From the NCBI RefSeq assembly GCF_007747215.1, contig NZ_CP036273.1, positions 5,316,322 to 5,380,321 on the forward strand: a stretch of 64,000 nt of DNA, read 5' to 3'. Below, piece by piece: positions 19,158 through 28,263 of this stretch. This stretch comes from Urbifossiella limnaea. GTDB lineage: Bacteria > Planctomycetota > Planctomycetia > Gemmatales > Gemmataceae. The notes under the pieces were generated by a model. The model was given only the letters and a program-made list of their open reading frames with translations, was not told where the DNA came from and did not search any database. Positions within the stretch are counted from its first letter, which is position 1, and the number at the start of each line of letters is the position of its first letter. The position numbers and the translations under genes are program-made.

Positions 19158-19739
19158 ATGCCGACCGCACTCAAGTCGTTGCACGTTCTCGCCCTCGGGC
19201 TGTGGGTCGGCGGGGCGGCGTTCTTCAACTTCGTGACCGCCCCGACCATCTTCGAGTCGTTCAAGCAAGTCGTGGAGGCCGGCCCGTCCGACCGCACGGC
19301 GTTCCAGCCGCTCGGCCGGCCGGGTGCGGACGCGAAGGACAAGGCGGCGCTGGCCAACGCACTGGCCGGCTCGGCGGTGGGGCCGGTGTTCCCGCGCTAC
19401 TTCCTGTGGCAACTCGTCTGCGGGGCGGTCGCTCTGACGACGGCGGCGGCGTGGTGGCGGCTCGGCGGCGTTCACCGCTGGCGGGTGGTCGTGATCGGCG
19501 GGGCGGTGGTGTGCGTGTCCGCGGGGTGGCCGCTGTCGGACGCGATCACGCGGCTGCGGGTGCAGCGCTTCGACCCGGACCGGGCGGTGGCGGAGGCCGC
19601 GGACGCGGCGTTCAAGGCGTGGCACCTGTGGAGTCTGGGGCTGAGCACCGTGACGGTGCTACTCGCAGGCGCGGGGCTAGCGATGGCGGCGAAGCTGCCG
19701 GCCGACGAGCGACCCGTTGGGGGCTCGGGTCCGTTCTAG
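19158..19739 (+). CDS. DUF4149 family membrane protein
   Basis: A 193-residue membrane protein with four hydrophobic segments. It begins LKSLHVLALGLWVGGAAFF and contains AGSAVGPVFPRYF followed by a second helix, and WHLWSLGLSTVTVLL near the end. This is the DUF4149/TMEM205-like layout, of unknown function. It is separated from the LPS operon by about 180 bases. Its stop marks the left edge of a lower-GC segment. A short AT-richer patch (19030-19060) precedes it. Confidence 0.85.
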   Translation: MPTALKSLHVLALGLWVGGAAFFNFVTAPTIFESFKQVVEAGPSDRTAFQPLGRPGADAKDKAALANALAGSAVGPVFPRYFLWQLVCGAVALTTAAAWWRLGGVHRWRVVVIGGAVVCVSAGWPLSDAITRLRVQRFDPDRAVAEAADAAFKAWHLWSLGLSTVTVLLAGAGLAMAAKLPADERPVGGSGPF

Positions 19740-19763
19740 GTCGGTATAAGTCGCCCTGTATTG

Positions 19764-19781
19764 CCACGACATTTGTCGTGG
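19764..19781. repeat. Short perfect inverted repeat at island edge
   Basis: CCACGACA (19764-19771) and TGTCGTGG (19774-19781) are separated by two T residues. It lies just after the DUF4149 stop, at the left side of the lower-GC segment. It could be a weak terminator or a trace of the junction. Confidence 0.4.
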
Positions 19782-19796
19782 TTCACCAGTCGATCA

Positions 19797-19880
19797 TGGG
19801 ACGCGTGATCGAGCCGGTGTTCTGGCAGGACGAGCCCGTGGAAGAAGCGAGGATGGTGATTCCGTTCAGGAAGCTGTAGG
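19797..19880 (+). pseudogene. Possible 3' remnant of a truncated gene
   Basis: A 27-codon frame from ATG 19797 to TAG 19880 ending in ARMVIPFRKL has a protein-like composition, unlike neighbouring noncoding frames. It lies between the DUF4149 gene and the low-GC cassette and overlaps the cassette's last stop on the other strand. It may be the tail of a gene broken when the island arrived, or chance. No homology can be claimed. Confidence 0.25.
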
Positions 19881-20597
19881 GTCGGCCCGTGGGGGTGACG
19901 GCATAGGTGCCCCGGTTCTCTTGCTCTTTAGCGAGTCATAAGCCTTATCGATGAGGTACTTGTCGCCCTTGACCTTTGTCGCCAATTCCTGATCCCCAGC
20001 TTCGTACCAGAAACCGGCTTCGGTAGCGTAACGACCGACGAACGTAGCCAGCCGTCCTTGCAGATATTTGGCCCCATCGTCCGTCAAGCACTTTACGCGA
20101 TTCTGTAAGAAATAGGCTCCCCAGGGGTCCTTTGCGAAGGACTGAACTTTGAGCAGGTCCGCCACAACTGCCGCATCGCCGATGGGCCGACCAAGATAGA
20201 TGAAACTGGCGTGGTCGGTGCCTTCCGTGATTGACCGCTTTACGTCCCACAAGACACAGGGCTCGTCATACTTCACGGCATCCCGGGCATCGACAACGAC
20301 AGATTCGAGTTTGAATATCCTTGCTACAGTCATGTAAGACTTGTGTTCGATGTCGCAATCCTGCGTAATGATCACACCGGGCTCGATGACTACTGGCAAA
20401 TCTGCGGCAACGACTGGTCTGCCTGCGGCCTTCTCCTTCGCCCTGCGAAACGACTCGGCGTCTTCCGCGCGGCACTTCGACTGACCCTGCTCCCCTTGTA
20501 TTTTGAGTTGCAGCGTCCTCGGGATGACGAAGAAGGGGACATCAGCGATGATGTCCCCTTGACCGAGAGGCCGCCCTGCTAAAGCGTCTTTGAGCAT
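19866..20597 (-). CDS. Unknown protein with TQDCD motif, low-GC cassette
   Basis: A 243-residue soluble protein. It contains QGDIIADVPFFVIP near the start and PGVIITQDCDIEH at about residue 75. A Gln/Ser-x-Cys-Asp motif of this kind occurs in a poorly characterised group of bacterial proteins, often beside mobile or defence genes; that association is recollection, not a search result. The C-terminal half has VKCLTDDGAKYLQGRL and a Lys-rich stretch. Base and codon use are clearly less GC-rich than the surrounding genome, so transfer is likely. Third gene of a minus-strand cassette, 13 bases after its neighbour. Function unknown. Confidence 0.7.
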   Translation of the reverse strand: MLKDALAGRPLGQGDIIADVPFFVIPRTLQLKIQGEQGQSKCRAEDAESFRRAKEKAAGRPVVAADLPVVIEPGVIITQDCDIEHKSYMTVARIFKLESVVVDARDAVKYDEPCVLWDVKRSITEGTDHASFIYLGRPIGDAAVVADLLKVQSFAKDPWGAYFLQNRVKCLTDDGAKYLQGRLATFVGRYATEAGFWYEAGDQELATKVKGDKYLIDKAYDSLKSKRTGAPMPSPPRADPTAS

Positions 20598-20610
20598 TCG
20601 TTCTTACCAG

Positions 20611-20958
20611 TTATTCGCCCTCGAACACCAGCAACTCTGCGTCGGGGTCGAGGATTTCGGAAGTCTGGCGGCGAGATCGTTCCTCTGGCACTGGAACGTC
20701 ATCCCTAAGGGCCGCTAGCGTTACCGCGTCGGCGATAAAAGCGACCTGCCCTGCCCGCGCTAGCGGTGGGACAATTTGGCGTGACTGGTCGTTCACTGCG
20801 CCACGCGAACCCGGCTTTTCAGCCCTCGAATACCGTTGTAGGGGCCGTGCGAACTTGCGCCGCTGGTATTTCGCGGCGCGGCCCCGCTCGTTGTAGAGTT
20901 CCCCGCCACGGCTTGAACACGCATCACGCTTCCGTGGGGGACAGTCGAGTTCCGGCAT
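20611..20958 (-). CDS. Small Arg-rich protein of the low-GC cassette
   Basis: A 115-residue protein. The N-terminal half is basic and Arg-rich (KYQRRKFARPLQRYSR), the C-terminal part acidic (ILDPDAELLVFEGE). No family is recognised. The ATG at 20958 lies two bases after the stop of the upstream cassette gene; a GTG at 20964 would overlap that stop. The gene is sandwiched between two others with the same lower GC, which suggests one transcript. It might be a DNA-binding or adaptor component, but nothing proves it. Confidence 0.55.
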   Translation of the reverse strand: MPELDCPPRKRDACSSRGGELYNERGRAAKYQRRKFARPLQRYSRAEKPGSRGAVNDQSRQIVPPLARAGQVAFIADAVTLAALRDDVPVPEERSRRQTSEILDPDAELLVFEGE

Positions 20959-20960
20959 GA

Positions 20961-21650
20961 TCACCCTTCCCCATTCTTCGGGGCGTCCAACTGATGGCGA
21001 TGCTTCAAAAGCGACAACTTCTGATCAAGTCGATCTAGCGCGTCACGGATGTCGTCAATGTCGTCCTCCGACAGCAACACCGAGACTTCCTCAAAGTCAT
21101 CCGACATACTCTTGTGAATGGTCATGCACATCGTGACTAGAGGAAGATATGTCACGATATCCGTAGCGTCTGCGTTGTAAACAGGACGAAGATCGCAAAC
21201 AGTGCGGAAACTGTGCAAGTGAGGGAGTGGACCTGTCTCCAAGCCCCGCAACTTGTCGGAATAGTCCCGGTTGGGAAAGTCAGAAAATAGCTCGACTATG
21301 AGCGATCTATTGTCCGTAATGAAGTTGGCAATACGCACCAGTTCTTCTTGTGACTCTTTGTTTTTCGGGAGTCGCTTCAGGAATTGAAGGAACTCGCCCG
21401 GGACGGACTCGGCCTCACGGCCCTGTCGCGTTCGCTGGGACTGAACCGAGTTAATCAGCGAGCAGAGACCTGCGGCGGCGTCATCGGAAATCGCCAAGAG
21501 GTCCGCCACTGCCGTATAGTAGCTAGACCTATGCGCATATTCGTTGTCATCGAAGTGCTTTCGCAGTGACCCGATCTGGTCCGCGCTCATCCTCGCGAGG
21601 ATGGCCAGGTCCTCTACGGCGTCGTCCGGCAAGTACAGCCAGTGAGCCAT
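20961..21650 (-). CDS. Unknown helical protein, first gene of low-GC cassette
   Basis: A 229-residue, probably all-alpha soluble protein. It starts HWLYLPDDAVEDLAILARM and ends with a likely coiled-coil (about 195-225) rich in Asp, Leu and Lys. It has no membrane segment and no enzyme signature I recognise. GC content is visibly lower than in the flanking genes. It opens a minus-strand three-gene cassette and its stop abuts the next gene. No clear Shine-Dalgarno precedes the ATG at 21650. Confidence 0.65.
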   Translation of the reverse strand: MAHWLYLPDDAVEDLAILARMSADQIGSLRKHFDDNEYAHRSSYYTAVADLLAISDDAAAGLCSLINSVQSQRTRQGREAESVPGEFLQFLKRLPKNKESQEELVRIANFITDNRSLIVELFSDFPNRDYSDKLRGLETGPLPHLHSFRTVCDLRPVYNADATDIVTYLPLVTMCMTIHKSMSDDFEEVSVLLSEDDIDDIRDALDRLDQKLSLLKHRHQLDAPKNGEG

Positions 21651-22070
21651 GTTGCGTTTTCGACCTCACGAACGACAACCCCTACCCCTCCCGGGGCGTC
21701 CTGCTCGTCTGGGGTAGCTGATCGGATTGGGATCAAGGTAGGGGCGGAGCCGGTCACCCGCAAGGAATTAGCGCAGAATACACCGCAGGAGTCCGCGCCG
21801 ACCACAACGACTTTTCCGATTGTGCAGGCTGCATCGACTCCGGTGCGCCGGGAATTCTGCCCTTTGGCTTGCGCCCCGTCCACCCCAATTATATGCGCCG
21901 CGATCAATCCCCCTGCGCTCCGCTGGGCCTGATCGCCTTCTTTTTCCGCCCTCGGATCAATCTGCTGCGTCGTCGTGGGCGGACCGGGCGCCTCTGGCAG
22001 AGGCGGGGTCGTGGGTAAGTTGTGCCACTCGCAAGCCGACCGCCCCGCCGTCGCTCCCCGAAGACTCGGC
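21651..22070. other. Intergenic region at the right edge of the low-GC island
   Basis: About 420 bases between the cassette and the agmatine deiminase gene. Short open frames exist on both strands (for example minus strand up to about 21907, starting with TTG), but none has a convincing start or composition. GC rises again near 21950. It probably carries the cassette promoter and a decayed junction. No integrase, direct repeats or tRNA were found here. Confidence 0.5.
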
Positions 22071-24885: not shown

Positions 24886-26757
24886 CTACCGCGCCGCGTC
24901 GCGGGCGATCAACTCGTTGACCCGGGCCGCCAGCGCCGTCGGGTCGGCGACCTTCGATCCCTCGGCGATGACCGCCTGCTCGTGGAAGAGCCGGGCGTAG
25001 ACCGCGACTCGCGGGTCGTCGGCGGACTTGGAATGCAGTTCCCGTGCCGCCTGAACCGCCGGGTGGTCGGGGTTCAGCTCCAGGACGCGCTTCCCCTTCC
25101 CCTCGCCGCGGCCCATCCGCTCCATGAGCCGCTCCATGTGCGCGCTCGTGCCGTGCTCCTCGGCCACGAGCACCGCGGCGCTCTCCGTCAGCCGCTTCGT
25201 CAGCCGCACGTCGGCGGTCTCGGGGAGCGTCGCCTTGAAGGCGGCTACCAGCGGCGCGAACTGCTCTTTCACGTCGGCGGGGATGTCGTCCGCCGTCGGG
25301 GCCGCGCCGCGGTCGGCCGCGTGGAGTTTCTTCCCCTTGTACTCGCCGAGCTGCGGCAGGGCGAACTCGTCGATCGGGTCGGACAGCAGCAGCACGTCCT
25401 GCCCCTTCGCCCGGAACGCCTCCAGGTACGGCGACCGCCGCAGCGGCTCGACGTCCTCGCCGATGAGGTAGAAGATGTCCGTCTGCCCCTCGGGCATCTT
25501 CTCGACGTACTCGGCGAGCGTGGTCAGTTGCCCGGCCGGCGTGTTGGCGCTCTCGAACAGGAGCAGGTCGGCGATCTTCTCGCGGTTCATGAAGTCGCGG
25601 GTGAGCCCCTCCTTGAGCACCGGCCCGAGCCCGGCGTAGAACTCGCGGTACTTCTCGAACTCGACGTTTTTCATGCCGGCGAGGGCGTCCAGCACGTTCT
25701 TCACGACGCTCTTCTGGATCGTCGTCAGGATCGGGTTCTGCTGCAAAATCTCGCGGCTGACGTTGAGCGGCAGGTCGGCCGAGTCCACCACGCCCTTCAC
25801 GAACCGCAGGTAGAACGGCAGCACCTCCTCGCAGCGTTCCATGATGAGGACGCGCTGCACGTACAGCCGCAGGCCGGCCTTCGGCTCCTCCCAGTCGAAG
25901 CTGAACGGCTTCTTGGCCGGCACGAAGCACAGCACCTTGAACTCGGTGTTTCCCTCGGCGGCGTAGTGGATCGTCGTCAGCGGCGGGTCGCTGTCGTGGC
26001 TGATCTGCTTGTAGAACTCGGCGTACTCGTCCGGCTTCACCTCCGCCTTGTTCCGCAGCCAGACCGCCTTGCGGCTGTTCAGCGTCTCCTCGGTCGTGGT
26101 CTTCTCGCCGTCCTTCTCCGTCACCTCGTCCATGACGACGGGGTGTTCGATGAAGTCGGAGAACTTGCGGACCAGCGAGCGGAGCTTCCACGGGTCGAGG
26201 AACTCGGCGGCGTCCTCCTTCAGGTGGAGGATCACGTCGGTGCCGCGGCCCGGCTTCTCGACCGCCTCCACGGTGAAGGCGCCCTGCCCGTCGGACACCC
26301 ACTTCGTGCCGTCGGCCGGCGTGCCCGGGCCGCGGGTGACGACGGTGACCGTGTCGGCGACCATGAACGCGGAGTAGAAGCCGACGCCGAACTGGCCGAT
26401 GAGCCCGGGGCCGGCGCCCTGGGCGCTGGCCTTCGCGGCTTCGAGGAAGGCGCGGGTGCCGCTCTGGGCGACGGTGCCGAGGTGGTCGATGACCTCCTGT
26501 CGGGTCATACCGATGCCGTTGTCCGAGATGGTGAGCGTCTTCGCCTCCTTGTCGGGGGCGATCTTGATCTTCCAGTCGGTGTTCCCTTCGAGCTTGTCGG
26601 CGTTGGCGAGGGCGTCGAAGCGGACCTTGTTGACCGCGTCGGAGGCGTTCGAGATCAGTTCGCGGAGGAAGATCTCGCGGTCGGAGTAGAGCGAGTGCGT
26701 GATGAGGCGGAGGAGCTGTTTGAGCTCGGCCTTGAACTCCAGCGTCTCGGCGGGCAT
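24886..26757 (-). CDS. htpG: Molecular chaperone HtpG (Hsp90)
   Basis: A 623-residue cytosolic ATP-dependent chaperone of normal bacterial length. The N-terminal GHKL ATPase domain has the metal-binding RELISNASDA, the Asp/Gly loop ISDNGIGMT and the lid GQFGVGFYSAFMVAD. The middle domain has LYVQRVLIMERCEEVLPFYL and the conserved catalytic-loop Arg in PLNVSREILQQN. The C-terminal dimerisation domain is complete. The ATG at 26757 matches the family N-terminus (ETLEFKAELKQLLRLITHS). It is a single gene flanked by a hairpin downstream and a long inverted repeat upstream, so it is probably monocistronic. Confidence 0.97.
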   Translation of the reverse strand: MPAETLEFKAELKQLLRLITHSLYSDREIFLRELISNASDAVNKVRFDALANADKLEGNTDWKIKIAPDKEAKTLTISDNGIGMTRQEVIDHLGTVAQSGTRAFLEAAKASAQGAGPGLIGQFGVGFYSAFMVADTVTVVTRGPGTPADGTKWVSDGQGAFTVEAVEKPGRGTDVILHLKEDAAEFLDPWKLRSLVRKFSDFIEHPVVMDEVTEKDGEKTTTEETLNSRKAVWLRNKAEVKPDEYAEFYKQISHDSDPPLTTIHYAAEGNTEFKVLCFVPAKKPFSFDWEEPKAGLRLYVQRVLIMERCEEVLPFYLRFVKGVVDSADLPLNVSREILQQNPILTTIQKSVVKNVLDALAGMKNVEFEKYREFYAGLGPVLKEGLTRDFMNREKIADLLLFESANTPAGQLTTLAEYVEKMPEGQTDIFYLIGEDVEPLRRSPYLEAFRAKGQDVLLLSDPIDEFALPQLGEYKGKKLHAADRGAAPTADDIPADVKEQFAPLVAAFKATLPETADVRLTKRLTESAAVLVAEEHGTSAHMERLMERMGRGEGKGKRVLELNPDHPAVQAARELHSKSADDPRVAVYARLFHEQAVIAEGSKVADPTALAARVNELIARDAAR

Positions 26758-26778
26758 GGGAGTGGTACTCCTCAGACA

Positions 26779-26894
26779 GATTGGCCACGAGAAGGCACAA
26801 AAAAGCACAAAAAAGGAAGACGGAACAGAACCTGACCTCGGTCTTGGCTCGGTCTTACTTTTTGTGTCTTTTTGTGCCTTTTCGTGGCCAATCT
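26779..26894. repeat. Long near-perfect inverted repeat upstream of htpG
   Basis: The left arm (about 26779-26816) begins AGATTGGCCACGAGAAGGCA and continues with A-rich CACAAAAA units. The right arm (about 26858-26894) is its near-exact complement, with one or two mismatches. The roughly 40-base spacer is less GC-rich. The arms are A/T-rich for this genome. It lies between htpG and the histidine kinase gene, both on minus, and could be a small mobile repeat. Confidence 0.7.
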
Positions 26895-26919
26895 CCGGGT
26901 TCGGGTTTGTGTCGTTAGC

Positions 26920-28263
26920 TTATGACGGGAACGCGACTCGGAACACCGTCCGGCCGCCCTCGCGGCCCCACGTCAGGGCCGCGCCGTGGGCGTCGGCGGC
27001 ACGCTTCGCCACGGCCAGGCCCAGGCCGATCCCCTCGGGCTTGCCCGTCACGAACGGCTCGAACAGTTTGGCCGCCAAGTCCGCCGGCGGCCCCGCGCCG
27101 CTGTCGCTCACCACGACCACGCCGGCGGCGAGTGACACCGCCACGTCACCGCCCGGCCCGGCGGCGTCGGCGGCGTTGTCGATGAGGTTGCCGAACAGGT
27201 GGGCGAGCTGCGCGGGGTCGCCGGCGAAGGCGTGCGGCGGCGGCGGGTCGAAGTGGAGCGTGATGCCGGCGTGCTGGCAGCGGGGGCGGGCCAGCTCGAC
27301 GGCCTGCGCCAGCAGTTCCGCGAGGTCGCACGGGCGGGGGTCGAACGGCGGCGGCTTCCCGGCGGTGAGGAACTGCCGCAGGTTCGCCTCGATGCGGGCC
27401 AGTTGCCGCAGCGCCACCCGTAACGGCTCCGGGTCGGCGGCCGGGTTCTCCGTCAGGAACAGCTCGATGGACAGCTTCGCCCCCGCGGCCGCGTTGCGGA
27501 GCTGGTGCGCCAGGCCGCCGGCGAACTGACCCAGCACGCGGAGCCGCTCGGCGCGGGCCAGGGCGTCGCGGTACTCGGCGAGCTGCCCGGCCATCGCGTT
27601 CACTGCCCGGTACAGGTCGGCGACCTCGTCGGCGGGGCCGGGCACGGGCACCGGCGTGAAGTCGCCGCCCGCGATGCGGCGGGTGTGGCCGTCGAGGGTG
27701 TGCAACCGGCGCACGAGGCCCGTTCCCAGCGCCAGCGCCAGCGCCACGGCGACGAGCCCGCCGGCACCGCCGAGCACGATCAGCGGCCGGGCGGCGGCCT
27801 GCACGGCGGTGCGGCGGCGCTCCTCGGGCAGCAGGATGTACAGCTCACCGCGCGACGGCCCGGGGTCGGCCAGCCGGCGGCTCAGTGGCAACCGCAGGCA
27901 CCGGTACTCGACGCCGCCGACGAGGACCGGCGGGCCGAGGTGGTCGTCCTCGTCGCGCGGCGCGGGAGGCACGTCGGCCGGGGGCGGCGTGGCGGGGTCG
28001 GCGAGCGTGCCGACGGGTGCGGCGCCGGGCCGGTCGAGGATGAACTCGGCGCCGCTGAAGCCCTTCATCAGGTGCAGCACGCGCTCGGAGAGGGGGTAGC
28101 CGGGCGGCTCGGTGACGGTGGTGGCGACGGCCCACAGCTGCGCCGCGAGTTGGCGTTCCGCGGCGCGGGCGGCGCCGGCGGCGGCCCACGCGGTCGCGGC
28201 CACGTCGCCGGCCAGGAGCAGCGTCAGCGGCAGCAGTAGACGGTAGCGGAGGGACAGCCGCAT
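26920..28263 (-). CDS. Orphan sensor histidine kinase
   Basis: A 447-residue membrane kinase. It has an N-terminal helix (about 8-28), a periplasmic sensor part rich in Pro/Asp, a second helix (about 160-182), a HAMP-like segment and the phosphoacceptor block GGLAHQLRN (His253). The ATPase domain has an N box at FGNLIDNAADAA, then VVVSDSGAGPP and GIGLGLAVAKRAADAHG. The HQLRN form resembles the NtrB/HELRN class. No response regulator is adjacent, so its partner is unknown; the nearest receiver (23297-23701) has Glu instead of the phosphorylated Asp. Confidence 0.9.
   Translation of the reverse strand: MRLSLRYRLLLPLTLLLAGDVAATAWAAAGAARAAERQLAAQLWAVATTVTEPPGYPLSERVLHLMKGFSGAEFILDRPGAAPVGTLADPATPPPADVPPAPRDEDDHLGPPVLVGGVEYRCLRLPLSRRLADPGPSRGELYILLPEERRRTAVQAAARPLIVLGGAGGLVAVALALALGTGLVRRLHTLDGHTRRIAGGDFTPVPVPGPADEVADLYRAVNAMAGQLAEYRDALARAERLRVLGQFAGGLAHQLRNAAAGAKLSIELFLTENPAADPEPLRVALRQLARIEANLRQFLTAGKPPPFDPRPCDLAELLAQAVELARPRCQHAGITLHFDPPPPHAFAGDPAQLAHLFGNLIDNAADAAGPGGDVAVSLAAGVVVVSDSGAGPPADLAAKLFEPFVTGKPEGIGLGLAVAKRAADAHGAALTWGREGGRTVFRVAFPS

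What the first reader, a model, noticed from the sequence alone, without database searches (positions are those of the whole stretch)
19740..22000. Lower-GC three-gene cassette of unknown function
Between GC-rich housekeeping genes, base composition drops abruptly and returns. The cassette encodes a helical protein, a small Arg-rich protein and a protein with a TQDCD motif, tightly spaced on one strand. It looks horizontally acquired and could be a defence or toxin-related system.
Basis: partly seen in the sequence, partly recalled or inferred. Interest (0 to 1): 0.65.

Follow-up and report, generated by a model that had tools for sequence, protein, structure and literature searches.

The report
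COMMD-like three-gene cassette in Planctomycetota
A small, recently inserted three-gene unit in a planctomycete chromosome pairs a bacterial relative of COMMD proteins, known mainly from eukaryotic endosomal sorting, with a small linker protein and a probable MazF-like toxin, in the slot layout of a wider group of toxin and defence-linked cassettes.

Summary
Between 19.74 and 21.95 kb GC falls from 0.71 to about 0.56, GC3 from mostly 0.92-0.97 to 0.65, and three genes lie tightly spaced on the minus strand. Four relatives of the same genus have the flanking genes adjacent (68-139 bp apart instead of 2.4 kb), so the cassette is an insertion.

Gene A (first gene, 229 aa) is a COMMD-like protein. 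Its profile matches the solved bacterial COMMD-like protein 9q6a (E=1e-8). Its AlphaFold2 model (pLDDT 82) best matches 9q6a and human COMMD chains.

A-family genes are the first of three in every complete locus found (12 of 12, Planctomycetota). The later genes vary: a HEAT-like plus a cysteine-protein gene, DUF7689, or (here) gene B plus the TQDCD protein.

TIGR04255, an unrelated family, occupies the same first slot before the same modules (DUF7689, TQDCD) and before PIN and MazF toxins. One A cassette sits between pglX and pglY of a BREX-2 locus.

The TQDCD family aligns along its length with MazF/PemK (hhalign 37%, far above controls); its fold prediction failed.

Best reading: a tripartite toxin-antitoxin-like module with the COMMD-like protein as control component. 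Structure and context are shown; function is inferred.

The parts
20961..21650 (-). Gene A: COMMD-like protein, 229 aa, first gene of the cassette
   Evidence: Profile of 12 homologues vs PDB: 9q6a COMMD-like protein E=1e-8. AF2 pLDDT 82, pTM 0.58. Foldseek best hits 9q6a/9q6c and human CCC/Commander COMMD chains, E 7e-8 to 2e-4.
21234..21620 (-). Helical N-terminal (HN-like) region of A, residues 11-139, 8 predicted helices
   Evidence: DSSP of the model; COMMD9 N-terminal domain 4oe9 Z 6.9 over 112 residues.
20988..21221 (-). COMM-like domain of A, residues 144-221: three strands and a long C-terminal helix
   Evidence: Model; 6bp6 COMMD9 COMM domain Z 8.4, 77 residues, 3.0 A.
21177..21197 (-). 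Family motif CDLRPV[FY], residues 152-158 of A
   Evidence: C152, D153, R155, P156 invariant in 12 sequences; D153 and R155 also kept in 9q6a and two more distant homologues.
20611..20958 (-). Gene B: 115 aa, 17 Arg, acidic C-terminal tail; probable linker/antitoxin-position gene
   Evidence: ORF, strong SD, coupled to A's stop; best of six frames. No homologue found.
19866..20597 (-). Gene C: TQDCD-family protein, 243 aa; probable MazF/PemK-like toxin-position gene
   Evidence: Homologue L059 E=6e-6; shares QGDI...P.VI.(T/S)QDCD with L047/L050/L057/L058; hhalign to MazF 37.4%, score 29.8, controls at most 21.7.
20352..20366 (-). TQDCD motif of C, residues 78-82
   Evidence: Q79, C81, D82 invariant in 8 aligned sequences.
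19740..22070 (.). Insert: the whole low-GC stretch including the ~420 bp leader upstream of A
   Evidence: Empty site in four same-genus genomes; GC profile. No direct repeats or tRNA at the ends.

Best explanation
The stretch is a mobile three-gene cassette of the toxin-antitoxin type with a third, controlling component. Gene C is the effector: a divergent MazF/PemK-like protein, probably an RNA-cutting or otherwise growth-stopping toxin. Gene B is a small fast-diverging partner in the antitoxin position. Gene A is a COMMD-like protein that probably forms an oligomer, as COMM domains do, and holds B (or B-C) in the inactive state. When A is titrated or disturbed, for instance by a phage component, B is lost and C is released. 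In related cassettes the TIGR04255 family takes A's place. Shown here: A's fold and homology, the operon layout, the exchange of A with TIGR04255 in front of the same modules, the insertion, and the defence neighbourhood of some relatives. Inferred: toxicity of C, antitoxin role of B, holding or sensing role of A, and phage as the trigger.
For: A homology. A as first gene of three same-strand genes in 12/12 complete loci. Exchange: L003 (A) and L062 (TIGR04255) carry the same downstream pair at 43% and 46% identity; TQDCD follows TIGR04255 in L047, L050, L057/L067, L058, L059/L069 and A in the window. Toxins in the third slot: PemK/MazF E=2e-13, PIN E=8e-8 to 6e-19. C vs MazF. Defence context: BREX-2 pglX and pglY flank the A cassette in L014; DUF499/HmaC and DUF1156/HmaB beside L070, L072, L073; abortive infection gene beside L050. 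Insertion.
Against: No function tested. The AF2 model of C failed (pLDDT 37), and the MazF match is only 37% probable; the MazF RNase residues were not shown to be kept. B has no detectable relative. Ten of twelve A cassettes carry a HEAT-like plus cysteine-protein pair, not a classical toxin. No defence genes were recognised beside the window's own cassette. A is found with a TQDCD gene only in this one genome.
Confidence: 0.5

Rival explanations
1. It is a stand-alone anti-phage system, not a toxin-antitoxin module: the COMMD-like ring recognises an infection signal and directly activates the third protein, with B as an adaptor. There is no antitoxin and no addiction.
For: BREX-2 and Hma-like neighbourhoods; variable third gene behind a conserved first gene, as in sensor-effector systems; sporadic distribution.
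Against: Third-slot PIN and MazF families are classical type II toxins, and second genes of the PIN cassettes share a C-terminal segment of antitoxin look.
Confidence: 0.25
2. A is a regulatory or scaffolding protein of a metabolic or envelope function, and B and C are enzymes or cargo unrelated to toxicity; the cassette is simply mobile.
For: Most A operons carry a cysteine protein with NlpC/P60-like motifs (weak Pfam hit, E=0.25) that could act on envelope or lipids; eukaryotic COMMDs work in trafficking (PMC10187114).
Against: Exchange with TIGR04255 in front of PIN and MazF toxins; one location inside a defence operon; sporadic, mobile distribution.
Confidence: 0.17
3. Decayed or chance ORFs in a low-GC island.
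For: B has no relatives and an odd composition; C's fold could not be predicted.
Against: A is found by its family profile at E=3e-62 (the profile includes it) and has the family fold; C has homologues in the same operon slot; start and stop junctions are tightly coupled.
Confidence: 0.04

Closest known systems
Bacterial COMMD-like protein MBK5214510 from a Flavobacteriaceae bacterium (PDB 9q6a, 9q6c, 9q6d)
   Same: Full-length homologue of A: helical N-domain plus COMM-like domain, shared D-x-R...F motif, profile E=1e-8, VIA Z 12.0 over 205 residues.
   Different: About 15% identity; its gene neighbourhood and function could not be examined here, and no paper on it is in the searched library.
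Eukaryotic COMMD1-10 of the Commander/CCC complex
   Same: HN + COMM architecture and fold (architecture in PMC10187114).
   Different: The tryptophan described as strictly conserved in COMMDs is absent from A's COMM-like domain; single gene in a bacterial operon rather than ten paralogues with CCDC22/93.
TIGR04255 family cassettes (NCBIfam 'sporadTIGR04255')
   Same: First gene of same-strand cassettes, commonly of three genes, with a small second gene and an exchangeable third gene, including TQDCD and DUF7689.
   Different: Protein unrelated to A by profile comparison (hhalign 0.6%); no paper in the library names it.
Toxin-antitoxin-chaperone (TAC) systems, e.g. the M. tuberculosis HigBA1 module with its SecB-like chaperone, and CmdTAC (PMC5105189, PMC11618068)
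   Same: Three genes; a component that is neither toxin nor antitoxin controls the antitoxin; phage sensing shown for CmdTAC.
   Different: The third component there is a SecB-like chaperone; A is COMMD-like.
MazF/PemK toxins (PF02452)
   Same: Collinear profile match of the TQDCD family; a true PemK sits in the same slot in L064.
   Different: No Pfam-level hit for C; extra insertions; TQDCD in place of the usual S-x-D-x-x-N; catalytic residues not established.

Membership tests
Bacterial COMMD-like proteins (9q6a type) | Full-length sequence homology to the solved protein | tested here: met
   Profile of 12 A-family sequences: E=1e-8, profile 16-223 vs chain 21-228.
Bacterial COMMD-like proteins (9q6a type) | Helical N-domain followed by three strands and a C-terminal helix | tested here: met
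   Model: helices within 11-139, strands 144-158/165-179/186-193, helix 195-221; Z 12.0 to 9q6a.
Bacterial COMMD-like proteins (9q6a type) | Oligomer (octamer in 9q6a) | not testable with these tools
   Only monomer prediction available.
Eukaryotic COMMD family | COMM domain fold | tested here: met
   6bp6 COMM domain Z 8.4, 77 residues, 3.0 A; human chains E 2e-7 to 2e-4.
Eukaryotic COMMD family | Strictly conserved Trp in the COMM domain (PMC10187114) | tested here: not met
   No Trp in the COMM-like region of A or of the aligned homologues.
Eukaryotic COMMD family | Curated Pfam COMM_domain score (PF07258) | tested here: not met
   No hit for window A; one of 12 members at E=0.27, below cut-off.
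TIGR04255 family | A belongs to the TIGR04255 family | tested here: not met
   No NCBIfam TIGR04255 hit for A; hhalign 0.6%; 0 matches in the window's genome.
MazF/PemK toxin | Pfam PF02452 match | tested here: not met
   No hit for C or for L047 and L109.
MazF/PemK toxin | Profile-profile homology along the length | tested here: inconclusive
   37.4%, score 29.8 over 109 columns; best of 100 column shuffles 13.5, reversed 18.6, unrelated families up to 21.7.
MazF/PemK toxin | MazF fold in a structure model | tested here: inconclusive
   AF2 model of C unusable, pLDDT 37.
MazF/PemK toxin | RNA cleavage and growth arrest | not testable with these tools
   Needs bench work.
TAC (toxin-antitoxin-chaperone) | Three-gene operon with toxin and antitoxin | tested here: inconclusive
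   Three coupled genes; toxin and antitoxin identity inferred from slot and weak homology only.
TAC (toxin-antitoxin-chaperone) | SecB-like third component | tested here: not met
   A is homologous to COMMD-like proteins by profile and its best fold matches are COMMD proteins.

The most novel reading that the evidence does not exclude
Bacterial COMMD-like proteins are the control (holding or infection-sensing) component of mobile tripartite toxin/defence cassettes, exchangeable with TIGR04255 proteins, and the COMMD family of the eukaryotic Commander complex descends from such prokaryotic conflict systems.
Probability: 0.25. Interest if true: 0.88.

Novelty: new variant of a known kind. Interest (0 to 1): 0.68.

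Why it matters
COMMD proteins are studied almost wholly as eukaryotic endosome factors, and where they came from is open. A bacterial COMMD-like structure was deposited in 2025, but I found no published function. This finding gives the bacterial family a genomic setting: same-strand three-gene operons, exchange with TIGR04255 in front of toxin-like modules, and one copy inside a BREX-2 locus. That makes a function directly testable with three small genes. It also points to a wider class of TIGR04255 cassettes that seems undescribed in the searched literature.

Tried and rejected
Pfam, PADLOC, NCBIfam and PHROGs with A, B, C: nothing above cut-off. Single-sequence searches of genome contigs, viral contigs, phages and plasmids with C, and of viral contigs and plasmids with A: nothing. 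A two-sequence A alignment in viral contigs: nothing. A weak COMM_domain Pfam hit (E=0.27) was only a lead until the model and PDB profile search; Pfam over 12 members gave 1 hit. SecB-like nature of TIGR04255: a profile vs PDB sequences found no SecB; not pursued. A and TIGR04255 as homologues: rejected. DUF7689 and the cysteine proteins as one family: no profile match (hhalign 0.1%). B as homologue of other second genes: none. Ends of the insert: no direct repeats and no tRNA there; mechanism of insertion unknown. Literature on TIGR04255 or bacterial COMMD: none found.

Full report
Observation. The window lies in a 7.8-Mb planctomycete chromosome (Planctomycetota by its relatives). Composition falls from 0.71 GC to about 0.56 between 19.65 and 21.8 kb, the only long dip in the window. 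The three genes read A -> B -> C on the minus strand. B starts (ATG 20958) 2 nt after A's stop behind GGGGAAGGG; C starts 13 nt after B's stop. GC3 is 0.64-0.66 against 0.83-0.97 for neighbours, and fit to host codon usage is 0.30-0.34 against 0.54-0.85.

Insertion. The flanking genes (DUF4149 and a PAD_porph deiminase) were located in five genomes of the same genus. In four of them both lie on one contig and are adjacent; the window flanks at 19704 and 22083 align 68, 120, 121 and 139 bp apart there instead of 2.4 kb. C is absent from those five genomes. So the cassette was gained in this lineage (or lost in four). No repeats or tRNA mark its ends.

What A is. Searches with A alone found one convincing relative (L003); a two-sequence profile added two more. 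The shared motif CDLRPVFD, scanned over 84,980 species genomes, matched 26 stretches; eight encode true relatives by alignment, and all eight are Planctomycetota. A 12-sequence profile added two more distant ones. The model of A (pLDDT 82, pTM 0.58) has eight helices, three strands and a long last helix. Foldseek's first 20 PDB hits are all COMMD proteins: the bacterial 9q6a/9q6c (E from 7e-8) and human Commander chains. VIA-align gives Z 12.0 to 9q6a (205 residues, 4.1 A) and 8.4 to the isolated COMMD9 COMM domain (77 residues, 3.0 A). Independently, the sequence profile finds 9q6a at E=1e-8, with nothing else significant. A is therefore a bacterial COMMD-like protein. It is not a canonical COMMD: the Trp reported as strictly conserved (PMC10187114) is missing, and Pfam does not recognise it.

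Operon anatomy of A. In all 12 loci with enough sequence (window, L003, L014, L015, L025, L027, L028, L036, L040, L043, L107, L108) A is followed on the same strand by two more genes, most of them overlapping or within 60 bp. In ten, these are a 240-400 aa protein (HEAT-like in appearance) and a 220-270 aa protein with conserved His and 'SC(V/A)xFV' motifs that looks like a permuted NlpC/P60 or LRAT-like protein (my reading of motifs; weak Pfam hit only). In L003 they are a 165 aa protein and DUF7689 (E=6e-41). In the window they are B and the TQDCD protein.

What C is. TQDCD proteins share QGDI near the start and P.VI.(T/S)QDCD some 30-60 residues on. In L047, L050, L057, L058 and L059 the TQDCD gene follows a TIGR04255 gene, in most cases with a small gene between. 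L050 is a Methylocystis plasmid with an abortive-infection gene nearby. The C-family profile aligns with 19 planctomycete MazF/PemK-type sequences over 109 columns: GDI with RGDV, IVLTQDCD with (A/V)VVSxDxxN, VAPLYN with VVPIT, and the last helix. Probability is 37%, score 29.8; unrelated families score at most 21.7, a reversed profile 18.6 and 100 column shuffles at most 13.5. This favours a MazF-like fold without proving it; the structure model failed.

The exchange. A survey of TIGR04255 in 199 Planctomycetota genomes (30 positive) shows it as the first gene of similar cassettes whose third gene is a PemK/MazF (L064), a PIN protein (L068, L070, L072, L083), a T/S-Q/H-x-CD protein (L065, L066, L067, L069, L074, L075, L081), DUF7689 (L062) or other recurrent families. 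Not all positive loci show this pattern. L062 and L003 have the same second and third genes (43% and 46% identity) but different first genes: TIGR04255 in one, the COMMD-like protein in the other. The window and the five TQDCD loci repeat this exchange for another third gene. A and TIGR04255 are unrelated by profile comparison. Two proteins without detectable homology thus occupy one slot.

Defence links. In L014 the A cassette lies between the end of pglX and pglY of a BREX-2 locus, all on one strand. TIGR04255 cassettes L070, L072, L073 precede HmaB/HmaC-like (DUF1156/DUF499) defence genes. The window's own cassette stands alone among housekeeping genes.

Mechanism proposed. By analogy with toxin-antitoxin-chaperone systems, in which a third protein guards the antitoxin and, in CmdTAC, phage capsid protein displaces it (PMC5105189, PMC11618068), A would guard B, and B would restrain C. 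COMM domains are obligate dimers that build rings (PMC10187114) and 9q6a is an octamer by its title, so A is likely oligomeric and could hold several B-C units. Only fold, homology, layout, exchange and insertion are shown; each functional step is inference.

Limits. Sampling is of hundreds of planctomycete genomes plus pattern scans, not exhaustive; the CDLRPVFD pattern would miss diverged members elsewhere (9q6a itself lacks it). Function is untested. 'Novel' rests on a library of open papers without subscription journals or bioRxiv.

Noticed in passing
L062-L091 (TIGR04255 loci): TIGR04255 is the first gene of many cassettes with PIN, MazF, DUF7689, TQxCD or other recurrent third genes in Planctomycetota; a possibly undescribed tripartite toxin-antitoxin class. 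Several second genes carry a hydrophobic stretch (L066, L068, L070, L075).
   Followed up: partly
L079, L085, L088, L089, L091: Recurrent TIGR04255 cassette with a ~150-180 aa 'WDSYG' second gene and a ~140 aa 'LWRRVHP' third gene of unknown function.
   Followed up: no
L014 4400-8252: COMMD-like cassette plus a 95-aa ORF lying between pglX and pglY of a BREX-2 operon.
   Followed up: partly
L107 2955-5075 and L108 3134-5205: A diverged COMMD-like subfamily (ADVRPLF / TDVRPVF) with its own second gene and a cysteine protein with an LTCASFVLAVF motif.
   Followed up: partly
L076, L084: TIGR04255 loci with a shared ~135 aa downstream protein (KPxAFLP...ASEPP...W), not identified.
   Followed up: no
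window 26451-26950: A second, short GC dip (0.59) at the start of htpG and its upstream region.
   Followed up: no
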